Shown here in pieces: positions 10,078 through 46,674 of a stretch of 64,000 nt of DNA. The notes under the pieces are model-generated. The model was not told where the DNA came from and ran no database searches. It saw nothing but the letters and a program-made list of their open reading frames with translations. Positions within the stretch are counted from its first letter, which is position 1, and the number at the start of each line of letters is the position of its first letter. Source of the stretch: Hysterangium stoloniferum (Eukaryota; Basidiomycota; Agaricomycetes; Hysterangiales; Hysterangiaceae); assembly GCA_015178975.1 (NCBI GenBank), contig WHVD01000079.1:248001-312000 (forward strand), written 5' to 3'. The translations under genes and the position numbers were made by a program.

Positions 10078-10100
10078 AGGTTGCGTCTGGGACAATGAGG

Positions 10101-13730: not shown

Positions 13731-13772
13731 GTGCCTCCTTCAGAGAAAATGGACAAACTAATTTGTCCAAAC

Positions 13773-13921: not shown

Positions 13922-13929
13922 GAGATTCT

Positions 13930-19480: not shown

Positions 19481-19688
19481 GTCCGACGCCGTTGGTACCT
19501 TCATTTTCTAGACCTTCTCCCGTGCATTTTTTGTATCAAGTACCTTCAATTTTTGGACCTCTCCCAAGCGTTTTCTTTTGTATCAAGGTATAGACGCGCT
19601 TATTTGTTGTCATTTGTCGAAGCTTTTTTCAACACTTCAAACTCTTTTAACTGTGCATTGCTACACTGGTTTGGTAATATTTGGTCCC

Positions 19689-19936: not shown

Positions 19937-20041
19937 TTTATTATCTATGTAGATAAAGTAGTGGTTTGTTCTCCATCACTCATTCTAGTCTGTCTGCGCC
20001 TGCGGCAGATACTAGTCTTATAATAGCATTGAAAATCATCA

Positions 20042-20470
20042 CTATAAAACAGCAATAACAGCAATAAAAACTGATAAGAGAAACATAACCACCCAAAGTG
20101 ATAAATGACTCTGCACATGCATAGGTCCCATATCAACAGCCTCTTTTAATGTGTTCTCCATATTAATACCAAAGACATCACTAGCACGCTGCATCGCGTG
20201 TTCACTCAGTTGATGTCGTTCTTCCTGCGATAAACTAATTATCTCCATAATAGCCTCACTCCACGTTTCAGCATCCGGCACTCTAAGCCACCCTGTCCTC
20301 ACGAAGGCAGGCTGACCAGACACATCCGGGTCCACAATGCTCTCCATTGCCACCGCCGTTACACCCTAGGACTGGCAGACCAGAAATCATCCCCTCCACA
20401 GGGATAATCCCAAACTCGTTGGTTGGCATGTAAAGCAGTGTGAGTGTTTTGGGCGATGTGAGTAGCCGGG
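20042..20470 (-). pseudogene. 3' fragment of an ALG2-like mannosyltransferase
   Basis: Read on the minus strand from 20470, the sequence gives TLLYMPTN, FGIIPVEGMISGLPVLGCNG, then after one frame change MESIVDPDVSGQPAFVRTGW, followed by a helical stretch and the hydrophobic C-terminal segment WVVMFLLSVFIAVIAVL ending at 20042. This matches the donor-sugar-binding half and the membrane tail of ALG2, the ER alpha-1,3/1,6-mannosyltransferase of N-glycan assembly. The catalytic N-terminal half is absent and a frameshift lies at the GGG motif. It probably is a remnant cut by the neighbouring transposon block. Confidence 0.75.
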
Positions 20471-22177: not shown

Positions 22178-22400
22178 CCAGGTTTACTAGGATAAGTGGT
22201 GTGCAAGTCAGTTACAATTTCCATAGCATGTCCAAGTTCTGTGGCCAGTATCCATGAAGTTTCTTTGTTGGTACCTTTGTAGCCTGCCCATTTGACTAAA
22301 TAAAGCAATTTACAAGTACATTGTCAATTGTCAATTTTAGAATCTAAAATCTCAGAAACTTCAAATTCAGGTTCTCCATCAATAATAACTAGAGGAGGCA
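22178..22400 (-). pseudogene. Gypsy4 pol C-terminus with chromodomain
   Basis: The minus-strand translation (VIIDGEPEFEVSEILDSK, then LLYLVKWAGYKGT and ETSWILATELG) closely matches the chromodomain end of Gypsy1 at 28780-29032. One in-frame stop is present. Nothing of the rest of this pol precedes it: at about 22400 it abuts, head to head, a plus-strand gag. Confidence 0.75.
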
Positions 22401-23012
22401 TTGAGGTAGCAAAAGATCCTGATGCTCCCAAAGTTTCTGACAATGACAACAAGGAAGTGCAGCTGGATAAACCAAAAAGAAATCTTCTGATGATCCAACT
22501 GAAATGATGTTTATCAACTCCATTGTGAAATTTGCTGACTATCTGAAATCCACTGAGGAAAGCAAAGAATCATCCTGTACCGGAGTCAAAGAACCTGGAC
22601 CATTTACCAGCAAGGATCTGAAAAAATTAAAGAATTTCCTTCTTCAATGCCATTTCAGTTTCCATGATCAACCTGCTGCATTTAAATCTGACAGTCAAAA
22701 AGTCAATTTTGTGCTCTCAAGGATACCACTCCTCAATGACTGGGACACATTTGTCAAAGAACTGGAAACTAACTTTGGACCTTACAATCAATCCAGTGAA
22801 GCAGAAAATGAACTAATGATGCTCAAGATGACAATCAACAAGTTTTTGATTATCTCATCAAGTTCAATACACTTGCTGCATGCTGTGGTTGGGACAATTC
22901 TGCTCTCAGGCACCATTTCTATATGGGTCTTCCATCTCACCTAAAAGACAACTGCAAAGAGGGAAAGTCAAAAACTCTCCAACTCATGCAGATGAAAGCT
23001 CAGACATCCAAT
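22401..23012 (+). pseudogene. Gypsy3 gag, 5' part
   Basis: Capsid-like region: FINSIVKFADYLKSTEE, then LKNFLLQCHFSFHDQP, NDWDTFVKELETNFGPYNQ, and after a frameshift LPSHLKDNCKEG and QLMQMKAQTSN. The NFGPYNQ-x-x-E-A-E segment matches Gypsy1 gag (NFGPYDQTGDAE). It stops at an LTR-like insertion at 23013, and by alignment its next codons are found at 46675 (AHYWECKVEF): Gypsy1 gag reads KAQNVDARYWE where the two pieces join as KAQTSN-AHYWE. Confidence 0.75.
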
Positions 23013-23180
23013 TGTTAGAGTATGATACTACAGCTCTAATATAGTCTATTATGATCTCTATATTTTTCTGATATTTGTAGTATTTTTCCCAGCACTGTAG
23101 GTGCAGTATTGGGTGAGTTACCTTAGGTTGGTAACTGCTGTATAGGTGCTTAGATGAGCACCTAGTAGTATAGTCCACTA
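23013..23180 (+). mobile_element. LTR-like insertion X, left part
   Basis: Starts TGTTAGAG immediately after CCAAT (23008-23012). Its other end, on the far side of the inversion, is the reverse complement of 31054-31139, finishing TTTCAACA next to CCGAT. Together these are about 254 bp with TG...CA ends and a one-mismatch 5-bp TSD. It contains two small hairpins (GTTACC/GGTAAC and TAGGTGCT/AGCACCTA). Confidence 0.55.
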
Positions 23181-23560
23181 CCTGCAGCAGAGCCACCTGC
23201 AGCAGAGCCACCTGCAGCAGAGCCACCTGCAGCAGAGCCACCTGCAGCAGAGCCACCTGCAGCAGAGCCACCTGCAGCAGAGCCACCTGCAGCAGAGCCA
23301 CCTGCAGCAGAGCCACCTGCAGCAGAGCCACCTGCAGCAGAGCCACCTGCAGCAGAGCCACCTGCAGCAGAGCCACCTGCAGCAGAGCCACCTGCAGCAG
23401 AGCCACCTGCAGCAGAGCCACCTGCAGCAGAGCCACCTGCAGCAGAGCCACCTGCAGCAGAGCCACCTGCAGCAGAGCCACCTGCAGCAGAGCCACCTGC
23501 AGCAGAGCCACCTACAGCAGAGCCACTTGCAGCAGAGCCACTTGCAATAGAGCCACTTGG
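23181..23560 (-). repeat. 15-bp minisatellite coding GGSAA (Helitron N-terminal region)
   Basis: About 22 near-identical copies of GAGCCACCTGCAGCA followed by three diverged ones. On the minus strand they encode repeated Gly-Gly-Ser-Ala-Ala. The same repeat in sense orientation opens the Helitron block at 31140. The left inversion breakpoint lies at the edge of this array. Confidence 0.95.
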
Positions 23561-23749
23561 CTGAGCAACCAAAAATGGATTATCAGGTTGACCTCTACCA
23601 ACAGGAAGATCTCCAAATGGTCGAGGAGGGAGTGGTATATTAGAATTTACAGCTAAACGCCGATGACGATCAGATGGAGATGTCATTTGTAATTGTGCCC
23701 TATGCTGCCATCGCTCTTCCTCCCTATTACGCTCAGGTGTTCGATCCAT
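23181..23749 (-). CDS. Helitron Rep-helicase, N-terminal piece (cut off by inversion)
   Basis: Begins MDRTPERNREEERWQ at 23749, then a Pro-rich segment (IPLPPRPFGDLPVGRGQ) and the GGSAA repeats, where the frame runs into foreign sequence and ends GLYY. The same Ser/Ala/Gly repeat starts the large Helitron frame at 31140 on the other strand, in frame. I infer that this is the true first coding part of the 31140-36497 protein, separated from it by the inversion. Confidence 0.7.
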
Positions 23750-25228
23750 AATAATACAGCAATCTCAGCAGCAGCAACAGAGACAGAAACCCTGGCAAGA
23801 AAGGGAGAACAGAGGAGTGATAGAAATTTGGAGTGAATTAGGCTAAAATAGGTCAAAAATGTGAAAATTAAATTATGAATAAATCTTTACAGCATCAGAG
23901 AAGGTATCAATACTAACCTGGAGTTGTTTTGTATCTCACAGGGTCACAGAGGGGATAGAAATAGCAATAAAGCCAAAGGCCACAGAATGGGAGGTCAATT
24001 TTAACTGTATGGATTATATCTGAGTAAAAAATGGTAAAACTAATTACAGGGAAAGGACTCACTTTCAATACTCTACTTATGCCTATAGGGAGCAGTCAGA
24101 AAAGCAGTAGAGAGTGCCAGGGAAAAGGAATTTAGACAAAGAGGTCTAAAATAGCCCAAAAACGTGAAAAATAATGCATAAATAATTTTTAACAGCATGA
24201 GAGAAGGTACCAATACTAACCTGGAGGTATGCTATCTGTTCCAGCAAGAATAGAAACAGCAATCAAGGCAATGCAGCACAGAATAGAGGAATGTCACTGT
24301 AAGAATAATATTTGAGCAAAGAAAAGTAAGGTTAATTAGAGGGACAGGACTCACCTTCAATACTCCACTTATACTCACAGAGAGGGGTCAACAAAGCAGT
24401 GGAGAGTCCCAGGGAAAAGGAATTCACACAAATGGGTCTAAAATAGCCCCAAAACGCGAAAAATAATGCATAAATAAATTAAAACAGCATCAGAAACCCC
24501 AAACCATACCTGATATTATAGGGCAGGCTTCAGATTGTGTGTTCCAATGAGATGAATACCTGGGAAAGAGTAATTTGACTGCAAATAAATTATTTAATCA
24601 TTAAAAAAAGCGAAAATTAAATAATAATAGATAGGAGCTCACCACACCTTTTATATTGCCTGAGGAGTTGAGGAAAGCTTCAGAGATAATAGCTGTTCAA
24701 TATTGGGGGTCCAGGGCCAGTGGATGGCCAGACTCTAACTGCAGAATAATATATTTAATTATTAAAAAGCGAAATTTAATAGAATTAAATAGAGGCCTCA
24801 ACACACCTTGGTATGGGCCCAAATCCCTTGAGAAATATTCTAAAGAGCAACCCCTCACAATTTAAGGAGCACCAAGCTGGGGGAGGGAGAGGGGAAAGGA
24901 GAAAGTGTGGCAGCCTCAAGGCTTTGCAGCGGCTATGGTGCAGAATGTTCCCACGCATCACAGAAGTCACGAAAAAGCTCCCGGCGCACGTCACATGGTG
25001 TCACACAATGCTCCCGCGGCACCAAAATACTCCCGCGAGTGCAGAAATACTCCCGCGAATGTTAAAAGCCTCCGGATTTGCTCCCGCGCTGACTAATAAC
25101 AGCCTTCGGGCGCTAATGCGCCCTCAGCTTAGTCACACAGTGAGGTTCGGGCGCTCCGTGCCCTCACAAATAGGGCCTGCGGCGCCTAAAAACGCCCACC
25201 ACCCACCATGCTCCTTTCACTTATTTGA
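23750..25228 (-). mobile_element. Helitron 5' end and leader
   Basis: In minus orientation the element begins TCAAATAAG at 25228, directly after the A of the interrupted Gypsy2 LTR (25229). This fits the Helitron rule of a 5' TC and insertion between A and T. The leader contains CGCGGGAG-rich sequence (24950-25090) and three tandem, about 295-bp diverged blocks (about 23830-24540) that carry GTGAGT donors and TTACAG acceptors on the minus strand, so the 5' untranslated region probably has several duplicated small exons. Confidence 0.7.
23830..24540 (-). repeat. About 295-bp tandem intron-exon duplications in the Helitron leader
   Basis: The string TCTAAAATAGCCC(C/A)AAAACG plus AATAATGCATAAATA recurs at about 24141 and 24434, and in diverged form at about 23838. 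Between them are repeated CTCACCTTCAATACTC and CAGTGGAGAG blocks. On the minus strand GAAG|GTGAGTCC...TTACAG|TGACATTCC and CTCCAG|GTTAGTATTGG look like splice sites. Confidence 0.6.
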
Positions 25229-25329
25229 TGTCCTGTTATGGGGAGGTAATAAAATGGAATAGACAATAAGGCATAGTCTGGGGGGTACTAATCTGGGGAA
25301 AATAAAGTGTGCATGACTTGTCCCTTACA
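25229..25329 (-). mobile_element. Gypsy2 5' LTR, first 101 bp (inverted)
   Basis: Reverse complement of the start of the 3' LTR at 42203 (TGTAAGGG...AACAGGACA). It ends exactly where the Helitron begins. The missing 230 bp are at 36736-36965 on the plus strand; 101 + 230 = 331, the length of the intact 3' LTR. The outer base is followed by GACAC (25330-25334), the complement of the GTGTC that follows the 3' LTR at 42534-42538. Confidence 0.9.
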
Positions 25330-28300
25330 GACACCGAGTCACCACATGCCCGAAGGCCACAAAAGCCCAATCCACCAATATGGCCACGACCTCACAACCG
25401 GCTAAGCTGGCTGCTGAGTCAAAAAAATATTAAGCAACTCTCTGGATTCTGTGTGGTTGGAGAGTTGCATTGAATCTCCCCACACACCGGAAAATTGTCA
25501 TCTTAATACATCCACCCTGTATGATCCTAATTCCTTGTTCATAAATCTTACTTCAGAACCCCTCGGGAGTATCACCTTTCGAGCTCTCATAGATTCAGGT
25601 TCAACCCATTGTTTTATAGATACAAGTTTTTCCCAAAAAAATCAGTTAAAAACCCATGCAATAGATCCAATTCCGCTCCTTACATTTTTTGTAACACAGT
25701 TGGACCCGAGCTGCTCCGTGGTTCTAGGACATCTGGCTCACCCGCTACAATCTGTTGATTGATTGGGTATTGGGCAATATCCATTTCCGAACCCCATCAG
25801 CACCCAATACGACTGGTCTGCTTCCACCTGTTTCAGCAAATATGGCCTCTATGGCACCTCCAGCCCCTGTGGCAAATCCGAGCTCTCCACCGCCTGTCTC
25901 TCTAATAAATGCCACAGCTTTTATGAGAGCCATCAAGTTGGACGGCTCCCGAGCATTTACAGTCAATCTTAAAGTTGACAAAGTCACCGGTCGCTTTGCA
26001 TCCCTGGTGACTGAACCAATCGCAGATTTGGAAGGTGTTCCAGAAAAATACCATGAATTTGCAGATGTCTTCAGTAAACAAAAAGCTGATCAACTTGCCC
26101 CTCACAGGCCTTATGATTTGAAAATTGATATTGAAGATGGTTCACATCTGCCCCTAGACCCAGTTTATCCTCTCTCACAGTCCGAGTTATCGGCTATCTG
26201 AGATTTCTTGGATGAACATTTGGCTATAGGTTTTATCTGTCCCTCAAAGTCTCCTTATGGAGCCCCTGTCCTATTCATTCAGAAAAAAGACAGTTCCCTT
26301 TGGCTTTGCATTGACTTTCGAGGACTAAATGCGATCACTTGTAAAGATAAGTACCCGTTACCACTAATCTCTGATTTACTCGATGCCCCTCAGAAGGCCC
26401 GAATCTATATAAAGATAGACCTCAGGCACGCTATCATTTGGTTCAGATCGCTGAAGGCGATGAATGGAAAACGGCTTTTCGCACTCACTATGGCTCTTTC
26501 GAATGGTTAGTGATGCCCTTTGGCCTCACCAACGCTCTGTCAGTCTTTCAACGTTTTATCAATGACATCTTTTCAGACCTCCTTGACGTCTTTGTCATTG
26601 TGTACTTAGACAACATTCTCATATTCTCCGAAGACCCTACACTTCATGATGAACACGTTCATGAAGTTCTCTGAAGACTCCAAAAACATGGTCTTTTCAC
26701 GAATGGTAAAAAATGTTCTTTTGATGTCGACACAGGTGAATATTTAGGTTTCATGATGGGACCCAACGGTCTCCGCATGGATGACTCTAAAATTCAAGTC
26801 ATTAAAGATTGGCTGGAACTCTGAAAGCTTAAGGGCCCAGTCCTTTTTAGGCTTGGCCAATTTTTATCATTGTTTCATTCACAACTACTCAAAAATTACC
26901 GTTCCGCTCACTCGTCTTACTCATAAAGATGCTCCATGAAATTTCTGCGAGGAATGCCGAATGGCATTCTGAGAATTGAAAAGTGCATTTACATCTGCTC
27001 CTATTTTGTTGCACTGGAAGCCCGACGTTCAACTCATTGTGGAAACTGATGCCTCAGATTATGCACTTGCTGCGATATTGTCCATTTTGGACACCGATGG
27101 TGAAGTACACCCAGTAGCCTTTTTGTCTCGCACATTTTTGGCACCCGAACTCAACTATGATGTTCACGATAAAGAACTACTTGCGATCTTTGAAGCTTTT
27201 AAAACATGGTGACATTATTTGGAAGGATCGGCTCACCCAATAGATGTTATTACCGACCACAAAAATTCAGTCTACTTTTCAACCACAAAACTCCTCACCT
27301 GTTGGCAAGCCCGATGGTCCGAATTCCTCTCCGCTTTCAATATGGTAATCTGTTTCCATCCCGGCCACCTTGGTGGGAAACCCAACACTATGACTAGAAG
27401 ATGGGACATCTATCCTAAAGAGGGGAGTAGCAACTACACCACGGTTAATCCACATAATTTCAAGCCTATGTTTTCATCGGAACAACTGTCCTTGTCTATC
27501 CCAGCCACTTACCTCATTCATCCAGTCTTGCAGTGTTATTCTTATGGATACCGAGAAATTACATCAAGATATATTATCAGCAATTCCATCAGACCCAGTC
27601 ACCAAAGCACATCTCGATAACCCATCCAACCCCGATCAACCCCGATGGTCACTAGACTCACAAGGTTACATTAGACTTGACAACCGCATCTATGTACCGG
27701 ATTCCAATACCCTTCGGTTGCAAATCCTACAACATAAGCACGACCACCCGATCTTGGGACACTTTGGCCTCAATAAGACTCTTTCACTCATTAGAAGAGA
27801 ATATACATGGCCCGGCATCCAAGATTTCGTTAAGCACTATTGCAAATCTTGTACAACATGTTTACGCTCTAAATCACAGCGACACAAACCATATGGCCTA
27901 CTCAAACAACTACCGATACCGGAAAAACCCTGGAACTTGATTTCTATGGATTTCATCGAGCACCTATTGGCATCCGAAGGTCATACAGCAATCCTAGTTG
28001 TTGTGGATCAGCTCACAAAGCAAAGTATTTTCATTCCAACATATGACACGATAATATCTGTACAGTTAGCCGAATTACATATTTGTCACCCACGTATTTT
28101 CCAAGCAAGGCATTCCATTGCATGTCACATCCGATCGCAGATCTGAGTTTGTCTCTCACTTTTTTAGGTCACTCGGAAAAGCACTAGACATGAAGTTACA
28201 TTTCACTTCGGGCTATCACCCGGAAGGTGACGGTCAAACCGAATGCATGAATCAAACTTTGGAACAGTACATTCATGTCTATTGTAACTATCAACAAGAC

Positions 28301-29032
28301 AATTGGAAATCACTACTACCACTAGCCGAATTCACATACAACAACGCACCGAATGCCACTACTGGTATTTCACCTTTCTTCGCAAACAAAGGCTACAACC
28401 CCAATATCGCAATCCACCCAGAACACGATCTCGCATCCACCCGTGCTCAAGACTTTGTTATAAACCTTGATGAGCTACATCAAGAACTTCATAAAATTAT
28501 CACAATGGCCCAAGAACGATACCAATGGTCTGCGGATAAGAATCGACTTCCGCCTCCTGATTTCAAGATTGGAGACCGAGTATTTGTTAAAGCCGAGTTT
28601 TTCCGAACTACTAGACCCTCTAAAAAGCTCTCTGAAAAATATTTAGGTCCTTTTGAAGTTATAGCACAAGCCAGCACGCTTTCATGAATGCTTCGGCTTC
28701 CCGACAACATGCATGCAGTGCACCCAGTATTTCACGTATCTATGTTAGAACCATGTGTTGCTAACAAAATACCAGATCACATACAATCACCACCGCCACC
28801 CGTGATCATTGATGGAGAACCTGAATTCGAGATATCGGAGATCCTAGACTCAAAAATCAACAATCACCGATGCTCATGCAAATTACTTTATTTGGTTAAA
28901 TGGGCTGGCTATGAAGGTACAGATGAAGAAACCTCATGGATTCTAGCTACAGGGCTCGGCAATGCCTCAGAAATCATTTTAGGGTTTCATCAAGCCTATC
29001 CAAATAAACCCGGTCCTCTAAATTCTTTATAA
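25330..29032 (+). pseudogene. Gypsy1 zinc knuckle and pol (now inverted relative to its gag)
   Basis: Ty3/Gypsy polyprotein with several stops and shifts. It opens with the second half of a zinc knuckle (HRVTTCP) whose first half (CLLCADPG) ends at 42539 on the other strand. Then protease with ALIDSGSTHCFID (about 25590), reverse transcriptase from 26090 ([41 protein letters not shown]), RNase H (VETDASDYALAAILS), integrase from 27730 (HPILGHFGLNKT, CKSCTTC, then SMDFIEHLL, VTSDRRSEFVSHF and GYHPEGDGQTE) and a chromodomain (LLYLVKWAGYEGTDEETSW). The RT catalytic YLDD reads YLDN, so this copy is inactive. It is followed by an antisense gene and the 3' LTR. Confidence 0.9.
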
Positions 29033-29126
29033 AGTTTTTCATGTGGTATCCGACCTTTTTCCGACTATGCCTTATGAAATCACGCTTTGTTTTGTTTGTT
29101 TGTTTTAAAATCATTATATTTTCCAA

Positions 29127-30122
29127 TTATTTAAAAGTCTCCTCTACCACCTCCCCTTCTTCTCTGGCTTCCAAAGCCTCCGGCTCACCAACGGCCACCA
29201 ATACCTCTTCACCGACCTTTTCCGATACCTCAATACCAGGCCCAATCCTGTCGCAACTCGACACCTCTAAGTACTGCTCAAGTTGTCCTCCAAGGGACTC
29301 TATAACACTGGTTTGTTTCTCCAGCCCGACGCCCAGAAGTCGCAACTGCTCGGTCATGAGCCCTTGTTGTCATAGTGTCTTGAATCGGAACCGCATCGTC
29401 TCCAAGAAATCGGTGCGCATGAGGTGGTTTTGCTCCTCTAATGTGTCAGCCTGCCGTTCTTGGTAGGATCCATTTCCGACAGCATCCGGGAAGACACATC
29501 CAAGTTTTTGGTTGGTGCACTCTTGACAGGTGTGGCCCCGACCACTTGCCCAAGGATGGCAAGTCCAACCCCGTTTGGTGCACCGGTTGCACTTGGGGTC
29601 ATTTTCGGCCCCCGCTTTAGGGGCTTGTTTTTGTTTCTATAATCAAAAAAAATAAGAAAATTTTAAAATTAGGAATCCGAACCCACCTTGGGGCTCAATG
29701 GGCCCGGTATATCTTCCTCATCCTCCTCTTCCTCATCATCGGACTCCGAAGGCATCGCGGCCTTGCACTAAAAAAAAAATCATCATCAGCAAAAGGTTCA
29801 CAAAAGAATGGGAACCCACTTACCTTTCCCTCTCGCTTTTTCTTCACCGCCTCCTCTCACACCTGATCGGCCTCCCGCTGCTTCTTCTTTGCAAGCACCG
29901 CACCCAGTGCTTGCGTGCAGCCTCTTCCACTGCCAGTTTTTTCTCCTCTGCCTCAATGGCCGCCAGCTCCTCTTTCTCTTTCCGCTCCTCCTCCTCACGC
30001 ACTTTCCTCTTCTCCTCGAGAAGCTGTCGATGTTCCTGTGCACTAGGTGGTCCACTCGGAACCAACATGGGAGTGACCGTCAACTGAACTGGGAATGGCT
30101 TCGACCCTGAACCTATGGTCAT
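29127..30122 (-). CDS. Antisense Zn2Cys6-like gene inside Gypsy1
   Basis: Lies between the Gypsy1 pol stop and 3' LTR, on the opposite strand. Exon 1 (30122 to about 29824) starts MTIGSGSKPFPVQL and forms a highly charged coiled coil (KRKVREEEERKEKEELAAIE), with one probable frameshift near 29900. Intron 29768-29823 (GTAAGT...TTTAG), an acidic exon (SESDDEEEEDEEDI), intron 29637-29686 (GTGGGT...TATAG), then a cysteine cluster at 29591-29496 spaced C-X2-C-X6-C-X10-C-X2-C-X6-C, the classical fungal Zn2Cys6 spacing. After one stop near 29370 the last frame (29357-29127) is Glu-rich. Role unknown; a DNA-binding regulator is possible from the cluster. Similar remnants lie in Gypsy4 and Gypsy5. Confidence 0.65.
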
Positions 30123-30295
30123 GGTGGTCGAGGGAAGAGAAGTGAAAATTCAAGTGCCAGAACCCCTCAAATTTTTATATGTAAATTTTTACTGAGTCAA
30201 ATGATGTTTTGACACACCAACTGTACCTGACAAGTTTTTATGTACAGAATCTAGATTTTCGGCCTCCTTGGGATTTCGGCCAAATGGGGGGATAC

Positions 30296-31048
30296 TGTTA
30301 CAACTGTGTCGCAACCTGACAGCCCCCGAGGTTATCGCCTCCTATCGACGATTCAAGTCATCATTCAAGTCATCATTCAAGTCTTCACATTGGAAACTGT
30401 CGGCTTCCCGATGCTGATGTATGCCTTTGTGGTGATCAAACTCTGTTTATGCCCCCGTCAAAATATACTTGTACTATCTGGTTAAACTTTGATATGTCCC
30501 TTTTATTATGATGATCCATTCTACATGATGTTTCACATATGTCTATATATACTTGTAACCCTCGTACTATTTCCTTTTCTCGTAATTCCGCTATCGGTTA
30601 TCTCATGGCCTCCGAACTAATTGTAACCTTCCTGTTTCTAGTCAAGCTTATTTGTCACTACCACTTTCTGCTCTTCTCCTAGTTAGTGTTTTTAGACACC
30701 TAATACTTGTATATGAACCTGCTGTAGTTGTAGTTACTAGGCAATCAGAATATTGACTCAAAATACCCTCCTACATCTATAGAAGTCTCATACTAAGTAC
30801 TCCGCTATCTGCCTTCACATGCGCTCACCCACTCTCAGTCCCCAACCCCTTGGCCTGACACTCGACTTATCCCTCGTTTCCGATCAGTAGTTTCACCAAG
30901 AGGTATTCATTAGGACTAGTCTTTGCCTGCCCGAAATTTAAGGACACCCAACGGTTAACTGCAAGGGCGCAGCACATAAGCTGAAGCCAAGTCCTTCCGA
31001 TCGGTCCCCATTGGCCCACCGACACTAGTCAGTTTTTAGTTCTTAACA
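30296..31048 (+). mobile_element. Gypsy1 3' LTR (753 bp)
   Basis: TGTTACAAC...TTCTTAACA. A purine tract (AATGGGGGGATAC) lies directly before it, marking it as the 3' LTR of the plus-oriented half element. It is followed by ATCGG (31049-31053), which matches CCGAT (46670-46674) beyond the partner LTR on the other strand. The partner (44616-46669 without its insertion) is also 753 bp. It contains the shared core CAGCACATAAGCTGAAGCC near 30975. Confidence 0.9.
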
Positions 31049-31053
31049 ATCGG

Positions 31054-31139
31054 TGTTGAAACAGTTGAATAATTCTTTGCAGAACACCCCTGTGAGTGTG
31101 ATTGGAAAGTAAACACTAAGGAGACTTTCCCACACCCAC
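31054..31139 (-). mobile_element. LTR-like insertion X, right part (inverted)
   Basis: The reverse complement ends TTTCAACA followed by CCGAT and is the probable other end of the element starting at 23013. It ends at the right inversion breakpoint where the GGSAA repeat begins. Confidence 0.5.
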
Positions 31140-36497: not shown

Positions 36498-36735
36498 GAA
36501 TTTGATGTTTTTTTCCTGACAATGATTGTATTAGATAGTTAAGAGTTGTGGATGTGAGGGGTTTGCATAGCAAAGTGGTGGGGTAGGTCATTTTGATTGT
36601 GATAAATACTTAAGAGTTGTCAATGCGGGGGGGTTTGGGGGGCGAAGCCCCCCAACAAGCTGGAGCCCACAGCGAAGTTGTGGGGCCGGTCGCAAAGTGA
36701 CCGCCCCCGCAGCGTAGCAAGGGTTCCTAAGCTTG
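36498..36735 (+). mobile_element. Helitron 3' end with GC-rich hairpins
   Basis: Non-coding 3' region. It has a perfect stem (TTGGGGGGC / GCCCCCCAA around GAA, 36635-36655), a second stem (CCCACA / TGTGGG) and a third weak one (GGTC/GACC), then ends CCTAAGCTTG at 36735. The next base is the T of the interrupted LTR. The last four bases CTTG deviate from the usual CTRR; CTAA lies five bases upstream. Confidence 0.75.
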
Positions 36736-36965
36736 TCTTATTCTTTATAGGGTACATTGAACTGATGTAAGAGGGCGCTTAAGGCGTGGGAAAATACACT
36801 GCATGCTGTATAGCTGACGTGTCACACCTGGTAGAGTTTCCTTAGACTTTTCTCTTTGGATTTCCTCTACTAGGTGAGTAGATAGTTATCTTGTATTTAG
36901 TCATTTATATATACCTTTGGATTTCCTCTACTAGTGTGATATCCACTCTTAGAGTTGCCCTTACA
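36736..36965 (+). mobile_element. Gypsy2 5' LTR, remaining 230 bp
   Basis: Matches 42304-42533 of the 3' LTR with a few changes, mostly CpG in this copy against TpG or CpA in the other. It ends CCCTTACA. The first 101 bp are at 25229-25329 on the minus strand. Confidence 0.9.
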
Positions 36966-37077
36966 GTAGAAAAGTCTCACAATCTTCGAGAACTGGCCGC
37001 GATTTTATTACAGGTATTAGACGGAATAAAATCACGACCCCTCCTCACACCCTTACTTCATTCAACTCACTTTTGGG

Positions 37078-38291
37078 ATGTCTCTGCCTCCAGAGCTCGA
37101 GCAACGCTTACAGGGCATGGAACAGAATGCCCAAGACAACATCAAGGCTCTCACGGACCTTATCACCCAACTTCAACTCACCGTCAGCAATCTCGCAAAC
37201 TCTACATCCTCCTCTTCCTCAGCTGCACCTGCTACCCTCCCTCTACACCCAATTGCCCAGCCTACACCATCTGTCGATTCGTCGGCTCGGTCGACACGTC
37301 ATCCGAAAGGTTCGAAACCGAGCGACTTTGATGGTAATAGAGACAGTGGCCGTAACTTCCTACACTCGTGCTACACCTACATGATGCTATGCCCCGAAGA
37401 CTTCGCAGATGACAACACGCGTATTCTTTGGGTCTTGACCTTCATGAAAACCGGTCGAGCCGCAACTTGGGCAAGCGAGGCCATCCTGCGACACCACGCT
37501 AAAGGTGTTATGTTCACGGACTGGGGCGACTTTCAGACCCAATTCGAAGCAGAATTCTACCCGCAGTTTGAACAGGAGGCCGCTGCCAGTTGACTCAATT
37601 CCACGGCATATTTTCAGGGTGCCAGGCATATTGACCTTTACATCGACAAATTTCGAGAAACGGCGCGTAAGGCGGAGTACACCGGTGCCCCGCGGTCATG
37701 GCGTTCAGAGCAGGTCTGAACCGCGGCGTCGAGTGACAAGTCGCGACCATGACGGTCGGTCGACCAGGCAATGGCGACCTCGACGGCTGGTTCGAGACCG
37801 CGCACATCGCAGCACAAGCGCAGACGGCCAGTGACACTTTCCAGCAGTCACTCCAGCGTCGAAACTTACCTTCGAGAACACCGGTCATTTCGTCGACGAC
37901 CGGATCACATTCGCACTCGATCCCCACACCCCCTCGCGTCAACTACGCACCGCCGCCAGGGCCGCCCCCCGGACCTCCCTTCCAAACACCGTCGATGCAA
38001 CGGGGATCCGCAGTCGGAATTGTGCCTATGGAAGTGGACCGGACTCGTCGGACCCAGCAACGCATCCCTCTCAATACCTGTCGTAGGTGTGGACAGGTGG
38101 GTCATTGGGCACGCGATTGTCCAGAGATTAGGGAAATCCTCCGTTTCCTAGCAGAAGACCCAGACGACCTGTCAGCCTTCACGCAAGATATATTGGCATT
38201 AGAGGATGCAGGCCATATTTCCAATATGGACAAGGAGTCACCCCCATTGGGACAGTCGGTGGAACAGGGTTTTCCCCCCAGCAACGAGTGA
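37078..38291 (+). pseudogene. Gypsy2 gag
   Basis: Starts MSLPPELEQRLQGMEQ, with a Ser-rich linker and a capsid region (KPSDFDGNRDSGRNFLHSC, then ILWVLTFMKTGRAATWA). The first frame stops at 37593; the matching continuation (YFQGARHIDLYIDKF and so on) is in another frame, and the C-terminal half from 37749 has a Pro-rich stretch and the zinc knuckle CRRCGQVGHWARDC (CX2CX4HX4C). So at least one frameshift and one stop break it. It overlaps the pol frame by four bases in the -1 frame; a T4C6 run at 38270-38279 is a candidate slip site. Confidence 0.8.
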
Positions 38292-41200
38292 AGGATGCGC
38301 CCTCGTTGCTTATTCATGACCAACTTCACAGTGTAATGATAGATAAGATAGAGCCCCAATACACTCCTCCTACTCATGCTGAAACTGTGAGACCAATAGT
38401 CATATCTAATCTCCCAAAACCCTACCTCCGTCTCCCGAAGTGGGAGCGGAGATTGCCACCCACTTACATCATATGTTCAACCCCCTCGACCAATTCCTTG
38501 TCCTTGCCGATTCAGATTCAGGCAACAGACACTGCTGAGATCCATGCCCTGAGTGCTCTTTTAGATTGTGGCGCTACAGGACTATTCATTGACAGGGACT
38601 TTGTTAAAAGGAAGCGCCTCACCACTCGTTCCCTCACTCGTCCAATTCCAGTCCTCAATGTTGATGGCACTCACAATGAGGCAGGTGCTATCATGGAAGT
38701 AGTTGACCTCATCCTGCATTATAAAGATCATTATGAGCGTGCTGTCTTTGCAGTCACTAGTTTGGGTCACCACAATATGCTTCTTGGATTCACCTGGCTG
38801 CGACAGCACAACCCAGAGGTAGATTGGTCAACAGGCAAGGTCACCATGAGTCGATGCCCATCCCAATGCTGGACTTGCCAACAAGAGTTAAAGGAAGAGC
38901 ATCGAGCAGCTGCAAGACTTCGGGCCTGTCGTACCGGGCCATTACCGATACCCATCACTCCTATAGAAGATGACTCAATAATGGAGGGAGAGGTAGAAGA
39001 AGATACTGAACTCCGAGAGGATGGGGACCGCATTTGGGTGGCCTCACTTCCCCCAGAAGAAGAGTTTATTCGTGCAAGTACTACCACCTCTCAGCGTCTT
39101 GCAGAGGCATTTCATCATAATTCCCAACCAATGACTCCAGGTAAAGGATCAGTACAAGATCAAATTCCTGTATACCTGCATGAATATGTGGACATCTTTT
39201 CCAAGGCCTCCTTTGACAGACTTCCTGAACAGAAAGCCTGGGACCATGCCATTGAACTGGTACCAGATGCCAAACCTTCATCTTGCAAGGTGTACCCTTT
39301 AGCTCCAAATGAACAGGCAGAGCTTGATGCCTTCCTTCAAGAGAACCTATCCACAGGCCGTATCCGACCCTCAAAGTCACCCATGGCTTCCCCAGTGTTC
39401 TTTATTAAGAAAAAGGATGGGTCCCTTCGTTTAGTACAGGATTATCGTGTTCTCAATGCTGTCACTATCAAGAACCAATACCCCCTTCCTTTGATCTCTG
39501 ACCTTATCAATCAGCTACGTGGAGCTCGCTATTTCACCAAATTAGATGTACGATGGGGCTATAACAATGTGAGGATCAAGGAAGGGGATGAATGGAAAGC
39601 AGCCTTTCGCACCAACCGGGGATTGTTTGAACCCCTTGTTATGTTTTTCGGACTCACCAATAGCCCCTCCACCTTCCAGATGATGATGAATGACATTTTC
39701 CATGACCTCATCATGGAGGGTGTAGTGGTCATTTATCTGGATGACATTTTGATATTCACCAAAACACTGCAAGAGCACTACCGTGTGTCACATCTAGTCA
39801 TGCAACGGCTACACCAGCATAAACTCTACCTCAGGCCAGAGAAGTGTGAATTTGAGAAGACCAAGATTGAATATTTGGGACTCATTATCTCAGAGGGTCA
39901 GGTGGAGATGGATCCGATCAAAGTGGCTGGTGTAGCAGAATGGCCAACCCCAGGTAGCCGTAAGGAAGTACAGTCCTTCCTGGGGTTTGCCAACTTCTAC
40001 CGACACTTCATCAAGGACTTCTCCCACCATGCACGTCCCCTGTTTGATCTCACCAAAAAGGATCAGCCTTGGAAGTGGGGCAAGGAGGAAGTGGGTGCCT
40101 TTCACACTCTCAAGCATCTAGTGACTTCAGCACCAGTTCTTGCCTTTGCGAAAGACAACCTTCCATACTGTATTGAGGCTGACAGTTCAGACTTTGCCAC
40201 AGAGGCAGTACTGTCTCAGCAGTCACAGGAGGATGGCAAGTGGCATCCCATTGCATTCTACTCCAAAAGCCTCAATGAGGTGGAACGCAATTATGATATT
40301 CATGATAAGGAGATGCTGGCTATCATCCGGGCACTGGAAGAGTGGCGTCACTTTGTAGAAGGTGCTGAGCATAAGTTTGAGATTTGGACAGACCATAAGA
40401 ACCTGGAATACTTCGCACATCCAAGAAGTTGAACCGGAGGCAAGCCAGATGGTCACTTTATTTGGCACGGTTTGACTTTGAGATGCATCATCGTCCGGGA
40501 GCCTCTATGGGAAAATCAGATGCTCTATCCAGACGTGCTGACCATGGTTCTGGTGCAGAAGACAATAAGGATAGGGTACTCCTCCGACCAGAATTATTTG
40601 CTATTCGAGCATTAGAAGGGATGGAGGTTTATGGTGAAGAACGGGACATCCTGAAGGATGTCCGGGAAGGCTTGAAGGAGTCAACCCCAGAAGATGCAGT
40701 GGCAAATGCTGTTCAGAAGATGCGCAAGACTAAAAGCAGGTCTATACAGTCCTCAGAGTGGTCAGAATCAGAGGGCCTACTCCTGTTTTGTGGGAAGGTA
40801 TATGTTCCAGACCACTTGGATCTCCGCCGCCGCATTATGGCCCAACATCACGATACCAAGGTAACAGGCCACCCAGGCAGGTGGAAGACCTTAGAACTCA
40901 TTTCCAGGAATTACTGGTGGCCCCAAATGTCCAGACATGTAGGACTCTATGCCAAGACTTGTGATGTGTGTTTGCGGACCAAGACCATCCGGCATAAACC
41001 TATGGGTCAGCTGCAGCCATTGCCAATCCCCAGTCAACGCTGGGAAGTGGTCAGTGCAGACTTTATTACGGAATTGCCAGAGGCCCATGGTTTCAATGCA
41101 ATTATGAATGTGGTTGACTCACTCTCTAAACGGGCTCACTTCATCCCTACCATGACCACATTGTCAGCAGCAGGTGCAGCATGTCTTTTCCTACAGCATG

Positions 41201-42085
41201 TCTGGAAACTACATGGCTTGCCAATGAAGGTGGTTTCTGACCGTGGCTCACAGTTTGTGGCAGAATTCACCAAGGAACTCTACCGCTTGCTGGGCATCAA
41301 GATAGCCTCCTCTACTGCCTATCATCCTCAGACAGATGGACAGACAGAACGTCTCAACATGGAACTAGAACAATACATACGGGTGTTCACAAATGAGCGG
41401 CAGGATGATTGGGATGAATTACTTCCCTTAGCAGAGTTCCAATACAATAACCACATCCATTCTTCCACACAACACACACCCTTCATGGTTGACACTGGTC
41501 GTCATCCGCACATGGGTTTTGAACCACATCAGGTGCCATCCAGATTGGAATCTGTGAATGAACTTAAGGAGCGTATGGCAGATGCACTACAGGAAGCTCG
41601 GGCTGCCTTGCAGAAATCAAAGGATGACATGGCGAGATACTATAACCGACGACGGGAACCCACTCCAGTCTATCATCCAGGAGATAAGGTGTTTTTGGAT
41701 GCGAGTAATTTAGCTACTACCCGACCATCAGCCAAACTGGCACACCAGCATTTGGGCCCTTTCATGGTAGAAAGGGCAGTAGGCACACATGCCTATCGAC
41801 TGCATTTACCTCAAAAGCTCAAGCGTTTACACCCAGTTTTCCCTGTTGTTAAACTCATGCTTGCTCCAGTGGACCCATTTCCAGGCCGTCCTAAGCCCTA
41901 CCAACCCCCCCCCAGATCTTGTAGGTAACCAAGAGGAATATGAGGTGGAGGAGGTCCTTGATAGCAGGATGCACTACAGGAAGTTCCAGTATCTTATCAA
42001 ATGGAGAGGTTATGGCTATGAGGAAAATGAGTGGGTGGATGCCAAGGATGTTCATGCACCAGAACTTGTCACTGAGTTTCATTGA
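38288..42085 (+). pseudogene. Gypsy2 pol (protease, RT, RNase H, integrase, chromodomain)
   Basis: Nearly intact polyprotein. Protease with ALLDCGATGLFIDRDF, RT with SPMASPVFFIKKKDG, DYRVLNAVTIKNQYPLPL and an intact VVIYLDDILIF, RNase H with EADSSDFATEAVLS and DIHDKEMLAI, integrase with zinc-binding HPGRWKTLELI...CDVCLRTK and the DDE residues in SADFITELPE, VVSDRGSQFV and AYHPQTDGQTERLNMELEQ, then a chromodomain (FQYLIKWRGYGYEENEWVD). Two frame changes: near 40417-40430, and at a C9 run (41905-41913) just before the chromodomain. Both could be single-base indels. The LTRs differ only slightly, so this is a relatively young insertion. Confidence 0.9.
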
Positions 42086-42202
42086 CTACACTCAGGTGCA
42101 CCCAGACCCATTCAGGAGAAAGACTTTGCCATTTTCAGGGACCCCAAGTTGAGGTTGGATAACACTCGTGTGTCGGGGCGCCACACCTAGATGGGGGGGT
42201 GA

Positions 42203-42533
42203 TGTAAGGGGACAAGTCATGCACACTTTATTTTCCCCAGATTAGTACCCCCCAGACTATGCCTTATTGTCTATTCCATTTTATTACCTCCCCATAACAG
42301 GACATCTTATTCTTTATAGGTACATTGAACTGATATAAGAGGGCACTTAAGGTGTGGGAAAATACACTGCATGCTGTATAGCTGACGTGTCACACCTGGT
42401 AGAGTTTCCTTAGACTTTTCTCTTTGGATTTCCTCTACTAGGTGAGTAGATAGTTATCTTGTATTTAGTCATTTATATATACCTTTGGATTTCCTCTACT
42501 AGTGTGATATCCACTCTTAGAGTTGCCCTTACA
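42203..42533 (+). mobile_element. Gypsy2 3' LTR (331 bp)
   Basis: TGTAAGGGG...CCCTTACA, preceded by a purine tract (ATGGGGGGGTGA) and followed by GTGTC (42534-42538), which is the TSD shared, inverted, with 25330-25334. It inserted into Gypsy1 gag between the Gly and His codons of the zinc knuckle. Confidence 0.93.
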
Positions 42534-42538
42534 GTGTC

Positions 42539-44578
42539 CGGGATCTGCACACAACAAGCAAAGGTTGTTGTCCATTCGACATTGCTTTTCCTGTGGTAGG
42601 AGTTTGCCATCGGAGCTGAGTTTGCCAGTTAAGTCAGGTTTGTCTTTATCTTGAGACTTATTCAACTGTTTGCCCTTGCCTTTCTTGTCATTAGAACCCT
42701 TGTTTTCAGACCTTTTATCGGAGTTCGAGTTGCTACTATTGTTGGTGTTTTGATTACCAGACTTGTTGGCATTCTTATTGTCCAATGATTTTTTGTCCAA
42801 TGGGTTTTCGCGACTAATTTCCAAATGTCATTCCCAGTACCGGGCGTCCACATTTTGGGCCTTTAGATGCATGAGGGGGAGAGTCTTCGGTTTGCCGGTC
42901 TCTCCTTTGGAAACTTCGTCTTTGAGGCAAGATGGGAGGTGTTAGGATACACACTCAGGCTGGGTTTCTGGAGAAACCCGCGGGATATCCGGTAGGACTT
43001 GGCTTCAGCTTATAGGCTGCGCCCTCGCTAGATCGTGTTGTCCAATTTCAAACGGACGGATGGGGATCCTGGGGAGTCCGGGCAGGGTTCGTGGGTCGTA
43101 GGTCGTAAGTCGGGGGTCGTGGGTTGTAAGTTGGAGGTCATGGGTTGTGAGTCGAGTTTGTTGAGAGAGATAGATGCGCCAGAGCCCATGGGCTCTGACT
43201 AGTGTGAGCGATGTGAATCGAGTAAGGTTTTAGAGTGGAAAATATTATTAGATTACTGGGGGGAATCTAAGCTAATTTTCTGACTGGATTATATGTACAA
43301 CATCTGCCAGTTTATATAGACTGTGGAATGCATGACATACCAAATCCAGTAATAACGAAACAAAACTAACAAAACATAAAACGGGAATAGTAAACACCAA
43401 ATTGGTGTTAGGAACGGGACGGAGTCCGAATCATGACAAAGCATAACCCATAACGGGAAACGGAGCGGGAGCGGAGTCCTAAATCGTGACAGGTCATTTG
43501 ACTAAAACGGGAATGGGGCTCGATTAGAGCGGTGACGGGATTCTAAGTGGGGACCGGTGACTGATGCGTGGGACGAAGACGGACATAGACAGAGACGGAG
43601 TCCGGGGGAAGTCCGGTGACTGATATGTGTTGTAATGAGGTCAAACGTAATGAGTCTTGACGTAACGGAGTCCGGGCGGGAAATCCTATAAACAGACGAT
43701 TGGTGCTTGTAGTGCGTGGGGGCGTACGGGTTAGTGCCCGGAGTCTGGCGGGATTGTCCGGTTGTAACAGGAGGCCAGAGTAAAATTGGTAATGGAGGGC
43801 TGAATCGCCCCAGTCACAACGCGCAGCAAGGTTGTTGAACTGGATGATGTAATCGGTGATGCACTGGGTGTCTTTCATTTTGAGATTAGAGAGCGCAGTT
43901 TCAGCATCGCCAGTTTGGTCATAGGGACCAAAGTTTGTTTCGAGTTCCTCAACAAAGGCATCCCAATCGTGAAGCCAATCGGGATCTTCGGAGGTGAGGC
44001 CGGAGAATGTGGGTTCAAACCAGGCTGCTGCAGAGTCCTTAAGGTAAGAGAGTGCAAAATTTATCTTTCGGTCATCCATTGCAAACGCAGCCAGGCGGTC
44101 CTGAAAGTTGAATCAACATTGCATAAGAAATGTCGGCAATTTCTTTGGGTTTGAGCCGGTAAACAGCTCAAGGTTTGTTGACTCAGGTTTGCCCAGGTTC
44201 CTTTTCCTTGGTATTGTTTCTAAGGAATTCGTTAAGGGATCCTAGGGTACCTGAGAACAATTCCCATGTCTTGTCAGGATCGAGAGCTGGTTTTTGTTTT
44301 GTGGATTTCTTAGAACCACTGGCCTGAGGTACTGGTTGGTCACCATCCTCGGGTTCGGGTTCCAGAGCTGATTGATTGTTATCCCCTTCAGGTGCTTCAG
44401 GTTCAGTTGCTTCAGTAACTTCTTCAGCATCGCCGGTAATTTCCACAAAGTGGGATTCTTCAGAGGTTCCTGGTTGCAGGGTTCTCTGAGTAGCTCGGGC
44501 TGTATACAGGAAAGGAGACTTGAGAGTGGAAAATTCTGCTTCACCACTTGGCTTGGTATCTTTTTTTCTCGGGGGCAT
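42539..44578 (-). pseudogene. Gypsy1 gag (5' half of Gypsy1)
   Basis: Starts MPPRKKDTKPSGE at 44578, with an acidic Glu/Pro-rich part and ALDPDKTWELFSGTLG. The capsid region follows on 44079-43770 (INFALSYLKDSAAAWFEP, then DWDAFVEELETNFGPYDQ and LHYQFYSGL). It is broken by a solo LTR (42940-43769) and resumes at 42934 with LPSCLKDEVSKGE, KAQNVDARYWE and an Asn/Ser/Lys-rich linker, ending in the first half of the zinc knuckle (CLLCADPG) at the Gypsy2 insertion. The rest of the element lies at 25330-31048 on the plus strand. Confidence 0.88.
42940..43769 (-). mobile_element. Solo LTR Y in Gypsy1 gag (830 bp)
   Basis: Plus strand TGTTAGGATAC...GGTTGTAACA, flanked by a perfect TSD GGAGG (42935-42939 and 43770-43774). 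Minus orientation is inferred from the shared core CTTGGCTTCAGCTTATAGG at about 42997. A sister solo LTR is at 51785-52604. Confidence 0.9.
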
Positions 44579-44615
44579 GATTAATGGAAAATGTGAGTGT
44601 GAAATCAGAATATAC

Positions 44616-46669
44616 TGTTAAGAACTAAAAACTGACTAGTGTTGGTGGGCCAACGGGGACCGATCGGAAGGACCTGGCTTCAGCTTATATGCTGCACCCT
44701 CGCAGTTAACCATTGGGTGTCCTTAAATTTCGGGCGGGCAAAGACTAGTCCTAATGAATACCTCTTGGTGAAACTACCAATCGGAAATGAGGGATAAGTC
44801 GAGTGTCAGGCCAAGGGGTCGGGGACCGAGAGTGGGCGAGCACACACAAAGGTGGATAGCGGAGTACTTAGTATGAGACTTTTATAGATGTAGGAGGGTA
44901 TTCTGAGTTGATATTCTGATTGCCTAGTAACTACAACTACAGCAGGTTCATATACAAGTATCAGGCATCTAAAAACACTAACTAGGAGAAGAGCAGAAAG
45001 CGGTAGTGACAAATCCGCTTGACTAGAAACGGGAAGGTTACGATTAGTTCGGAGGCCATGAGATAACCAATAGTGGAATTATGAGAAAAGGAAATAGTCC
45101 GAGGGTTACAAGTATATATAGACATATGTGAAACATCAAGTAGAACAGATCATCATAATAAAAGGGACGTATGTGAGGTATCAGCTTTATCTCATAATTT
45201 TCTCTTAATTTTCTTTGAATTTATTAATATTTTCTCGAATTTATTGTATTTTTATTATATTTTTATTGTGAAATATAGGCTCTATCCCTTTTAACTTTGC
45301 ATAATAATAGCATATATGAACTCATATTATGCTATTATATCTTAGTTAATTTATTATAATTTTTTAACTAATTATTTATATTTTATTTACTTAGTTATTA
45401 CCTTTCGGCACCTTGCGCAGCCTAGTTTGCGCATTTTTGGAGTCATGTGACCCATTACATAAGCCTCCGGTGTCGGGATGTCACAAAGGTCACGAATGTG
45501 ACTACCCGAGTCACACAAGTCACGAACGTGACTACCCGAGTCATTATTAGGTTCCGCCGACTCATCGTTTGCTTCCGTCCCGGGACCGCGGCCTTGAACC
45601 TTCATGTTCAAGCAAGAGGTTACAACCCTTGTCTCAGAGAAGAGAATCACATGATAGACAAAGGGTAAATATTGAGTAGAATATGAGGTCATTATGATCT
45701 CACTAATGACCTCATAAACTAAATAGTTAGCTAATCATTGAGTTATCAAAATGTATATAAGGAGGGCCAAGTTTCCAATAAAACCAATCTATCTCTCACA
45801 TATTTTACAGTACAGCACAGAAGCTTACCTCATCATCCTAAGGACAATAATAGCCTTAGTTTGATACACTCACTGCAAGCACCTACACTTGCAGCATCTT
45901 GAATCTTTGTCAGCAACTCTTGGACTTGGCTAATCATCTAAGTTCCCCAGCCTCACAGCTACCCTTTAGGCTTATTAATTAGATAATAAACCTAATAAGT
46001 ATCTAAGTATCCTTACTGAAATCCCTGCCAATACTAGATTACTCAAGGCCCAGCCCTAAGTTTATTGAATTAATCAAGTACAAGCACTCAGATAATCCAA
46101 TACAAATTATTTTCTCTATTAATAAATTATTTAACACCTTGTTAAATAACTATTAATAGTTACAAATAAGCATACAAGAATCCGAAGCTCTTATATCAAG
46201 TCTCTGCCAAGTTACTGCGCATATATTCAGCTTCCAGCCCCTATTCTCAAGGAATAGTTCTTGTATTTGCTAAAAGAGTCATACACAGTTCTATTGAACC
46301 TTTCAATAATCAAAATAAGCATTGATTTGAGTTGTTTAAGCTTCATAGTGCAGCTCATTAATCTATCAGTATTTAAATTACTGGACCTTTGCTTGTTTTA
46401 TTGTTGAAGCTCTGTGACACTATAGCATATATTGAGCTATCTAAGAGAATCCCCTGAATACATTACAATGTATCAAAGTTTAACCAGATAGTACAAGTAT
46501 ATTTTGACGGGGGTGTAAACGGAGTTTGATCACTGTGAAGGCATACATCAGCATTGGGAAGCCAACAGTTTCTGATGTGAAGACTTGAACGATGACTTGA
46601 ACGATGACTTGAATCATCAATAGGAGGCGATAACCTCGGGGGCCGTCGGGTTGCGACACGGTCGTAACA
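44616..46669 (-). mobile_element. Gypsy1 5' LTR, split by solo LTR Z
   Basis: The two parts, 44616-45171 and 46473-46669, total 753 bp, equal to the 3' LTR. The outer end (TCGTAACA) is followed by CCGAT (46670-46674), the TSD. The inner end at 44616 borders the leader before gag. Confidence 0.9.
45172..46467. mobile_element. Solo LTR Z (about 1.3 kb)
   Basis: TGTGAGGTATC...GAATACATTACA, flanked by ACGTA (45167-45171) and ATGTA (46468-46472): a 5-bp TSD with one C-to-T change at a CpG. Inside are two GTCACGAA(T/C)GTGAC palindromes 30 bp apart (45489 and 45519), a TATATAAGG box at about 45755 and an AATAAA at about 45777, consistent with an LTR promoter and poly(A) region in plus orientation. 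The remainder is AT-rich and has no gene. Confidence 0.75.
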
Positions 46670-46674
46670 CCGAT

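What the first reader, a model, noticed from the sequence alone, without database searches (positions are those of the whole stretch)
23008..46674. Four-level transposon nest cut by an 8-kb inversion, reconstructable base by base
Gypsy1 is split with its halves on opposite strands, yet its outer flanks match as a TSD (ATCGG at 31049, complement CCGAT at 46670) and both LTRs are 753 bp. Gypsy2 is likewise split, with TSD GACAC/GTGTC (25330 and 42534) and LTR pieces 101+230 equal to the intact 331. The Helitron has its 5' end at 25228 (-) and its 3' end at 36735 (+). One inversion of about 23181-31139 explains all three, with one breakpoint at a GGSAA-coding minisatellite and the other inside the LTR-like insert X.
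Basis: partly seen in the sequence, partly recalled or inferred. Interest (0 to 1): 0.9.

Follow-up and report, generated by a model that had tools for sequence, protein, structure and literature searches.

The report
Transposon nest split by clean inversion
In a fungal genome, mobile elements that jumped into one another were later cut by a flip of 7,960 bases, and sister copies elsewhere in the same genome show where both cuts fell; it is a well-documented example of a known kind of event.

Summary
Relatives in the window's own assembly show the unsplit order for three families: the 253-bp LTR-like X (11 of 11 relatives examined), the Helitron (10 of 10 fetched copies; 25 of 26 places that could be paired, the exception being the window) and Gypsy1 (one paralogue). 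X is cut at CCACT|GTGGG with no base lost, gained or duplicated; the other cut lies in the Helitron's coding 15-bp minisatellite, in phase. Neither junction has microhomology: the footprint of two clean double-strand breaks rejoined end to end. Corrections: X and Gypsy1 sit side by side in one target of an older Gypsy gag (CCAAT-X-CCGAT-G1-CCGAT), and a 1,296-bp element (Y) interrupts Gypsy1's right LTR. Gypsy1's 8% LTR divergence is mostly CpG decay (51 of 56 transitions); outside CpG it is 1.4%. No uninverted allele was found and no reads were available, so an assembly error is unlikely but not excluded. An ordinary kind of event, unusually exact.

The parts
21500..23012 (+). Host element Gypsy0, gag side, left of the nest (start approximate, not determined); target CCAAT at 23008-23012
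   Evidence: In seven gag relatives printed this sequence continues into the bases that stand at 46675; in L020 only for nine bases, then a solo LTR. L020 (contig C129) is 98% identical on both flanks
23013..23179 (+). X, left 167 bp (starts TG)
   Evidence: 11 relatives hold this part next to the 31139 end of X; L041 lacks some bases shortly before the join
23179..23180 (.). Left inversion junction (X | minisatellite)
23180..25228 (-). Helitron 5' part: 5' end TC at 25228, N-terminal coding part, minisatellite 23180-23556 (25 units of 15 bp, read as GGSAA)
25229..25329 (-). Gypsy2 left LTR, first 101 bp
25330..25334 (.). Gypsy2 TSD GACAC (= GTGTC on the other strand)
25335..31048 (+). Gypsy1 pol side (integrase zinc-binding domain; Tf2-1-like SH3 just under its cut-off) and 753-bp LTR 30296-31048; 31, 53 and 35 stops in the three forward frames of 25755-29030
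31049..31053 (.). Gypsy1 TSD ATCGG (= CCGAT), standing where the right-hand target copy of X would be
31054..31139 (-). X, right 86 bp (ends CA)
31139..31140 (.). Right inversion junction (X | minisatellite)
31140..36735 (+). Helitron 3' part: 4.8 minisatellite units, 1761-aa Rep/helicase ORF 31212-36497 (Helitron_like_N, PIF1), 3' end CTTG
36736..42533 (+). Gypsy2: rest of left LTR (36736-36965), coding part with RT, RNase H and integrase domains, right LTR 42203-42533
42534..42538 (.). Gypsy2 TSD GTGTC
42539..46669 (-). Gypsy1 gag side and LTR (44616-45171 + 46473-46669)
   Evidence: Retrotrans_gag; paralogue L048 joins this to 25330 onwards on one strand
45172..46467 (.). Y: TG...CA insert of 1,296 bp in Gypsy1's right LTR, flanks ACGTA / ATGTA
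   Evidence: L022 holds a relative at about 97% in two pieces
46670..46674 (.). Gypsy1 TSD CCGAT
46675..49300 (+). Host Gypsy0 continued (end approximate, not determined); CpG almost absent

Best explanation
A balanced 7,960-bp inversion (23180-31139) inside a pre-existing nest: X and then Gypsy1 entered the gag of an old Gypsy element, Gypsy2 entered Gypsy1, a Helitron entered Gypsy2's left LTR, and after that two double-strand breaks, one in X and one in the Helitron's coding minisatellite, were rejoined the wrong way round by end joining without loss, gain or microhomology. Shown: order, orientation, both junctions in the assembly, and that the flip postdates the Helitron (one cut lies inside it). 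Inferred: that X preceded Gypsy1, and that the breaks were simple double-strand breaks sealed by non-homologous end joining, with the array as the fragile partner. Consequence (inferred): the Helitron's 5' end and N-terminal coding part are cut off from its Rep/helicase, and Gypsy1 and Gypsy2 are split, so none of the three can move as a unit.
For: X unsplit in 11 of 11 relatives examined (10 of the 12 loci cut, plus L021; the other two were the window itself and a Gypsy1-LTR-only locus); the join is CCACT|GTGGG in 9 of the 10 printed and CCATT|GTGGG in one. Helitron pieces collinear in 10 of 10 fetched copies, not all of them full length; of 40 places of the 5' piece, 25 pair collinearly with a 3' piece, 1 (the window) as inverted, 14 had no partner in the list used. 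Gypsy1 paralogue L048 joins 42534 and 25330 on one strand at the five TSD bases. LTR start-to-start spacing of four same-strand Gypsy2 LTR pairs (C525, C346, C79, C442) is 5,556-5,570, against 5,568 here once the pieces are ordered; other same-strand pairs on one contig lie further apart (C13 13,294; C49 9,589) and were not counted. No junction homology. Host site without X and Gypsy1 at 98% identity in L020. Array total 449 bp here against 90-506 bp in 10 other copies, so one array split in two suffices.
Against: No reads or second isolate. The full X-Gypsy1 junction was matched only by the window (40 of 1744 first-look candidates scored), so no uninverted allele was seen. The cut in the array cannot be placed to a unit, so loss of whole 15-bp units there cannot be excluded. 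Four of the ten compared Helitron copies (L015-L018) hold no exact copy of the window's unit, so their arrays are only approximate equivalents. The Gypsy1 test rests on one paralogue whose matched stretches are 84-89% identical.
Confidence: 0.88

Rival explanations
1. Recombination between inverted minisatellite arrays: X first gained a copy of the Helitron's array in its middle, and the 7.6 kb between the two opposite arrays then flipped by homologous exchange.
For: Opposite arrays do flank the segment now (72 bp, 96% complementary).
Against: It needs an extra, unexplained array insertion exactly in X without duplication; none of the 11 X relatives examined has one, and the array total fits one Helitron. 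The opposite arrays are also a product of the simple flip.
Confidence: 0.05
2. Assembly error: the sequence is collinear in the living strain and was flipped by the assembler at the minisatellite.
For: One end is a tandem array, a usual weak point; no reads were available.
Against: In the collinear order X and the array share no base at either junction and the repeat search shows no longer match between them, so no repeat would mislead an assembler at the X end; both joins are exact to the base.
Confidence: 0.06
3. No inversion: independent insertions of fragments in opposite orientations.
For: The region is dense with related elements.
Against: Would need matching broken ends of several elements, base-exact, by chance; the halves of X, the Helitron, Gypsy1 and Gypsy2's LTR each add up.
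Confidence: 0.01

Closest known systems
Cut-and-paste inversions (clean double-strand breaks, end joining without duplication), as described for Drosophila in PMC7584159 (passages read)
   Same: Balanced, no inverted duplication at the ends, no homology at the junctions.
   Different: Only 8 kb, wholly inside a transposon nest of a probable fungus; one break in a coding minisatellite.
Agaricomycete Helitrons such as HELPO2 of Pleurotus ostreatus (PMC4289320, passages read)
   Same: AT target, 5' TC, 3' CTTG as reported for HELPO2, Rep and helicase in one ORF.
   Different: Carries a 15-bp coding minisatellite near the N-terminus; the corresponding span is 90-506 bp in 10 copies. The 120 best protein relatives listed of 1330 are 40-50% identical over the 501-aa region searched.
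Galileo-generated Drosophila inversions (PMC2775673; only the search listings with title and start of abstract seen)
   Same: Inversion breakpoints in transposable elements.
   Different: By its title Galileo acts by ectopic recombination; here the uninverted order offers no inverted pair at the cuts.
CpG-biased decay of transposons in Tricholoma matsutake (PMC6980582, passages read)
   Same: C-to-T change biased to CpG in repeats of an agaric.
   Different: Here it is seen on one LTR pair inside a nest; the cause was not tested.

Membership tests
Balanced inversion by end joining | Both halves of the cut sequences are present and fit without loss | tested here: met
   X to the base; array in phase, though loss of whole units cannot be seen
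Balanced inversion by end joining | No homology between the two cut sites | tested here: met
   0 bp on either side of both junctions
Balanced inversion by end joining | Physical presence of both junctions in DNA of the strain | not testable with these tools
   No reads held
Inversion by recombination between inverted repeats | Inverted repeat pair at both ends before the event | tested here: not met
   X relatives hold no array (11 of 11 examined)
Helitron | Rep (Helitron_like_N) plus PIF1 helicase | tested here: met
   E 2.9e-58 and 2.5e-72
Helitron | Inserted between A and T without TSD; 5' TC | tested here: met
   Window: GACA|T against the intact right LTR. TC start in 5 of 5 other copies printed, preceded by A in 4; the fifth, L016, follows what looks like another Helitron's end
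Helitron | 3' CTRR | tested here: not met
   Ends CTTG here and in the 3 other copies whose 3' end was printed; CTTG is reported for HELPO2
Helitron | Hairpin of 16-20 nt about 12 nt from the 3' end | tested here: inconclusive
   A strong stem by RNA folding, but it ends 25 nt from the terminus; no shuffled control was run
Ty3/Gypsy LTR retrotransposon (Gypsy2) | TG...CA LTRs, 5-bp TSD, RT and RNase H before integrase | tested here: met
   the integrase core match is just under its Pfam cut-off (32.0 against 32.6) while the integrase zinc-binding domain passes; gag of Gypsy2 was not given to Pfam
Ty3/Gypsy LTR retrotransposon (Gypsy1) | TG...CA LTRs, 5-bp TSD, gag and pol domains | tested here: inconclusive
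   LTRs, TSD, Retrotrans_gag and integrase zinc-binding domain found; its reverse transcriptase was not given to Pfam
Solo LTR (X) | TG...CA and 5-bp TSD; identical LTR in a parent element | tested here: inconclusive
   TG...CA; of 5 relatives printed with both ends, 3 have exact 5-bp TSDs, 1 has one mismatch, 1 could not be read; no parent element was sought

The most novel reading that the evidence does not exclude
The flip was not random breakage. The coding minisatellite of this Helitron family (CTGCTGCAG in each unit) is a preferred break site, cut at a hairpin, and was joined to a second small palindrome in X (CCAC-T-GTGG, cut at its centre). The flip also left an orphan Helitron 5' end pointing out of the nest towards host DNA, a configuration that could start one-ended capture of the neighbouring region. 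Against it: the other 25 paired Helitron places show no such flip, folding and palindrome tests were weak, and no partner 3' end was found to the left in the window.
Probability: 0.08. Interest if true: 0.6.

Novelty: new member of a known kind. Interest (0 to 1): 0.38.

Why it matters
Inserted elements act here as built-in rulers: both breakpoints of a small inversion can be fixed from one genome, one of them to the base, with the uncut sequences known from relatives. The nest also gives an ordered clock, which suggests that raw LTR divergence misdates insertions in this genome because CpG sites decay several times faster than the rest.

Tried and rejected
Hairpin-driven breakage: single-strand DNA folding of 120 nt of the array gave z -1.1 and -2.1 on the two strands (27 and 5 of 200 shuffles as stable) and +0.4 and +0.6 for the 72-nt side; too weak to claim. 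The break in X lies at a 4-bp palindrome centre, but 11% of X positions are within reach of one, so this is not significant. A recurrent inversion at the array: none of the 25 other paired Helitron places shows it; 14 further places could not be judged. A Helitron 3' end left of the nest that could pair with the orphan 5' end: not found in the window with up to 3 mismatches (its own end at 36720-36735 and a 3-mismatch hit at 49995, both on +). An uninverted allele: not found; the full X-Gypsy1 junction was matched only in the window. Paper searches (the first 10-15 rows of each listing, or all where fewer) showed no title or start of abstract that describes an inversion inside a nested fungal Gypsy/Helitron stack. 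Most of these papers were not opened, so this is no proof of absence.

Full report
Setting. The window is G000:C532:248001-312000, one contig of a 111-Mb assembly in 554 contigs. Of the 120 best protein relatives of the Helitron listed (of 1330), 24 rows carry an organism name; 12 of these are Agaricomycetes (class assigned from recall), 8 Rhododendron, 4 others, including a mayfly record with the best E-value. A mushroom-type basidiomycete is likely, by inference only.

Checking the claim. Gypsy1's LTRs read in opposite directions at 30296-31048 and 44616-46669. Its TSD is ATCGG / CCGAT, Gypsy2's is GACAC / GTGTC. The Helitron's 5' end is at 25228 on the minus strand and its 3' end at 36735 on the plus strand. 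Random 5-mers here are reverse complements with frequency 0.0013.

Independent test 1, X. Of 12 loci cut for 30960-31139, one is the window and one holds only Gypsy1 LTR. In the other 10 the bases of 23013-23179 and of 31139-31054 lie side by side on one strand (L041 with a small gap in the match before the join); an 11th relative, L021, does the same at 80-88% identity. The join reads CCACT|GTGGG in 9 of the 10 printed and CCATT|GTGGG in one. X is therefore a 253-bp TG...CA element. Five relatives were printed with both ends: 3 show exact 5-bp TSDs, 1 has one mismatch, 1 could not be read because the printed position was off. The window's X is cut without a base lost.

Independent test 2, the Helitron. 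In 10 of 10 fetched copies the reverse complement of the 5' piece (23557 onwards) lies upstream of the 3' piece (31140 onwards), with the array between; the main matched pieces are 85-99% identical and several copies are truncated or interrupted. Genome-wide, 40 places of the 5' piece were examined: 25 pair with a 3' piece within 10 kb in the collinear sense, 1 (the window) in the inverted sense, 14 have no partner in the list used. The array spans 90-506 bp in ten other copies and 449 bp in the window if its two parts are added; four of the ten hold no exact copy of the window's unit. The two parts meet in phase at GGT|GGC.

Independent test 3, Gypsy1 and Gypsy2. Paralogue L048 joins window 42534 onwards and window 25330 onwards at the five TSD bases on one strand, whereas in the window they stand on opposite strands. 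Four same-strand Gypsy2 LTR pairs read off (C525, C346, C79, C442) have starts 5,556-5,570 bp apart; the window gives 5,568. Pairs further apart (C13 13,294; C49 9,589) were left out.

Collinearity. Flipping 23180-31139 as a list of coordinates gives host, X, TSD, Gypsy1, TSD, Gypsy2 LTR, Helitron, Gypsy2, TSD, Gypsy1, TSD, host. The sequence itself was not rebuilt.

What the host is, and the order of events. Seven of the eleven gag-relative loci were printed at the insertion site: 6 read CCAAT|GCCCACT and 1 CCAAA. The window reads CCAAT-X-CCGAT-Gypsy1-CCGAT. The simplest reading is that X entered first, its right target copy changed A to G, and Gypsy1 then entered that copy and duplicated it; X and Gypsy1 are neighbours, not nested. 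The closest host copy among the 40 scored, L020 on contig C129, is 98% identical on both sides (281 and 333 aligned bases) and has neither X nor Gypsy1 at this site; it has a solo LTR of a Gypsy1-like family nine bases further on, with TSD ACTAT. The search with the longer right flank did not list C129; its best other match was 84%. A further TG...CA element, Y (45172-46467), sits in Gypsy1's right LTR with flanks ACGTA / ATGTA.

Clock. Gypsy1's LTRs differ by 56 transitions and 4 transversions in 753 bases (8.0%); 51 of the 56 transitions are at CpG, although only 106 of 359 C/G sites are in CpG in either copy. Outside CpG the difference is 9 of 647 sites (1.4%). The host flanks differ from L020 by 19 of 933 non-CpG sites (2.0%), and two stretches near the mannitol dehydrogenase gene differ from C129 by 20 of 811 and 14 of 908. 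Gypsy2's LTRs differ by 2 of 323, with two gap columns in each piece. The Helitron's 3' piece differs from three compared copies by 13 of 4,120, 33 of 5,382 and 38 of 5,384. The order host split, Gypsy1, Gypsy2, Helitron agrees with the nest, but the counts are small and neighbouring steps are not clearly apart. Taken at face value the raw 8% would place Gypsy1 before the host split, which L020 argues against unless L020 lost both elements cleanly. CpG observed/expected is 0.04-0.08 in the host element and 0.94 in window 1-12000; the nest's own elements lie between (0.28-0.78) and do not follow the nest order.

Mechanism. Neither junction has a base of homology, and X shows no duplication at the cut. 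Following the scheme in PMC7584159 (passages read) this is a cut-and-paste inversion by end joining. Recombination between inverted repeats lacks the pair it needs in the uninverted order. That breaks and end joining were the agents is inferred. The present inverted arrays (72 bp at 96%) could in principle flip the segment again.

Status of the assembly question. An assembler flip usually needs a shared repeat at both ends; the X end shares nothing with the array. This makes an error unlikely, but only reads can close the point.

Judgement. It is a clear and unusually exact example of a known kind of event, useful as a base-resolved breakpoint pair, not a new system.

Noticed in passing
30296-31048 vs 44616-46669; host 21500-23012 and 46675-50000: Strong CpG-specific decay: 51 of 56 LTR transitions at CpG, and CpG observed/expected of 0.04-0.08 in the host element against 0.94 in window 1-12000. 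LTR dating in this genome may mislead unless CpG sites are set aside.
   Followed up: partly
12361-23012; L044, L045, L046 and contig C129: A segment with a mannitol dehydrogenase gene is repeated at about 92-98% on contigs C129 (three copies, both orientations), C17 and C135.
   Followed up: partly
23008-23012 and L020 1786-1795: Three LTR-type insertions (X, Gypsy1, and a solo LTR in the C129 copy) within about ten bases of the same gag site.
   Followed up: partly
L011 928-931, L013 1166-1167: In two Helitron copies on different contigs the flank is another piece of the same Helitron family, broken at the position of window 32502.
   Followed up: no
L016 around 1103: The 5' flank of this Helitron reads like another Helitron's 3' end, suggesting a head-to-tail pair.
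   Followed up: no
1498-4869 and 6690-10049: A 3.4-kb direct repeat at 82% identity.
   Followed up: no
13415-13563 and 13773-13921: A 149-bp direct repeat, identical; the C129 and C17 copies L044 and L045 appear not to hold it as a pair.
   Followed up: no
19685-19937 and 53689-53957: Two nearly perfect minisatellites, 16-bp and 18-bp units.
   Followed up: no
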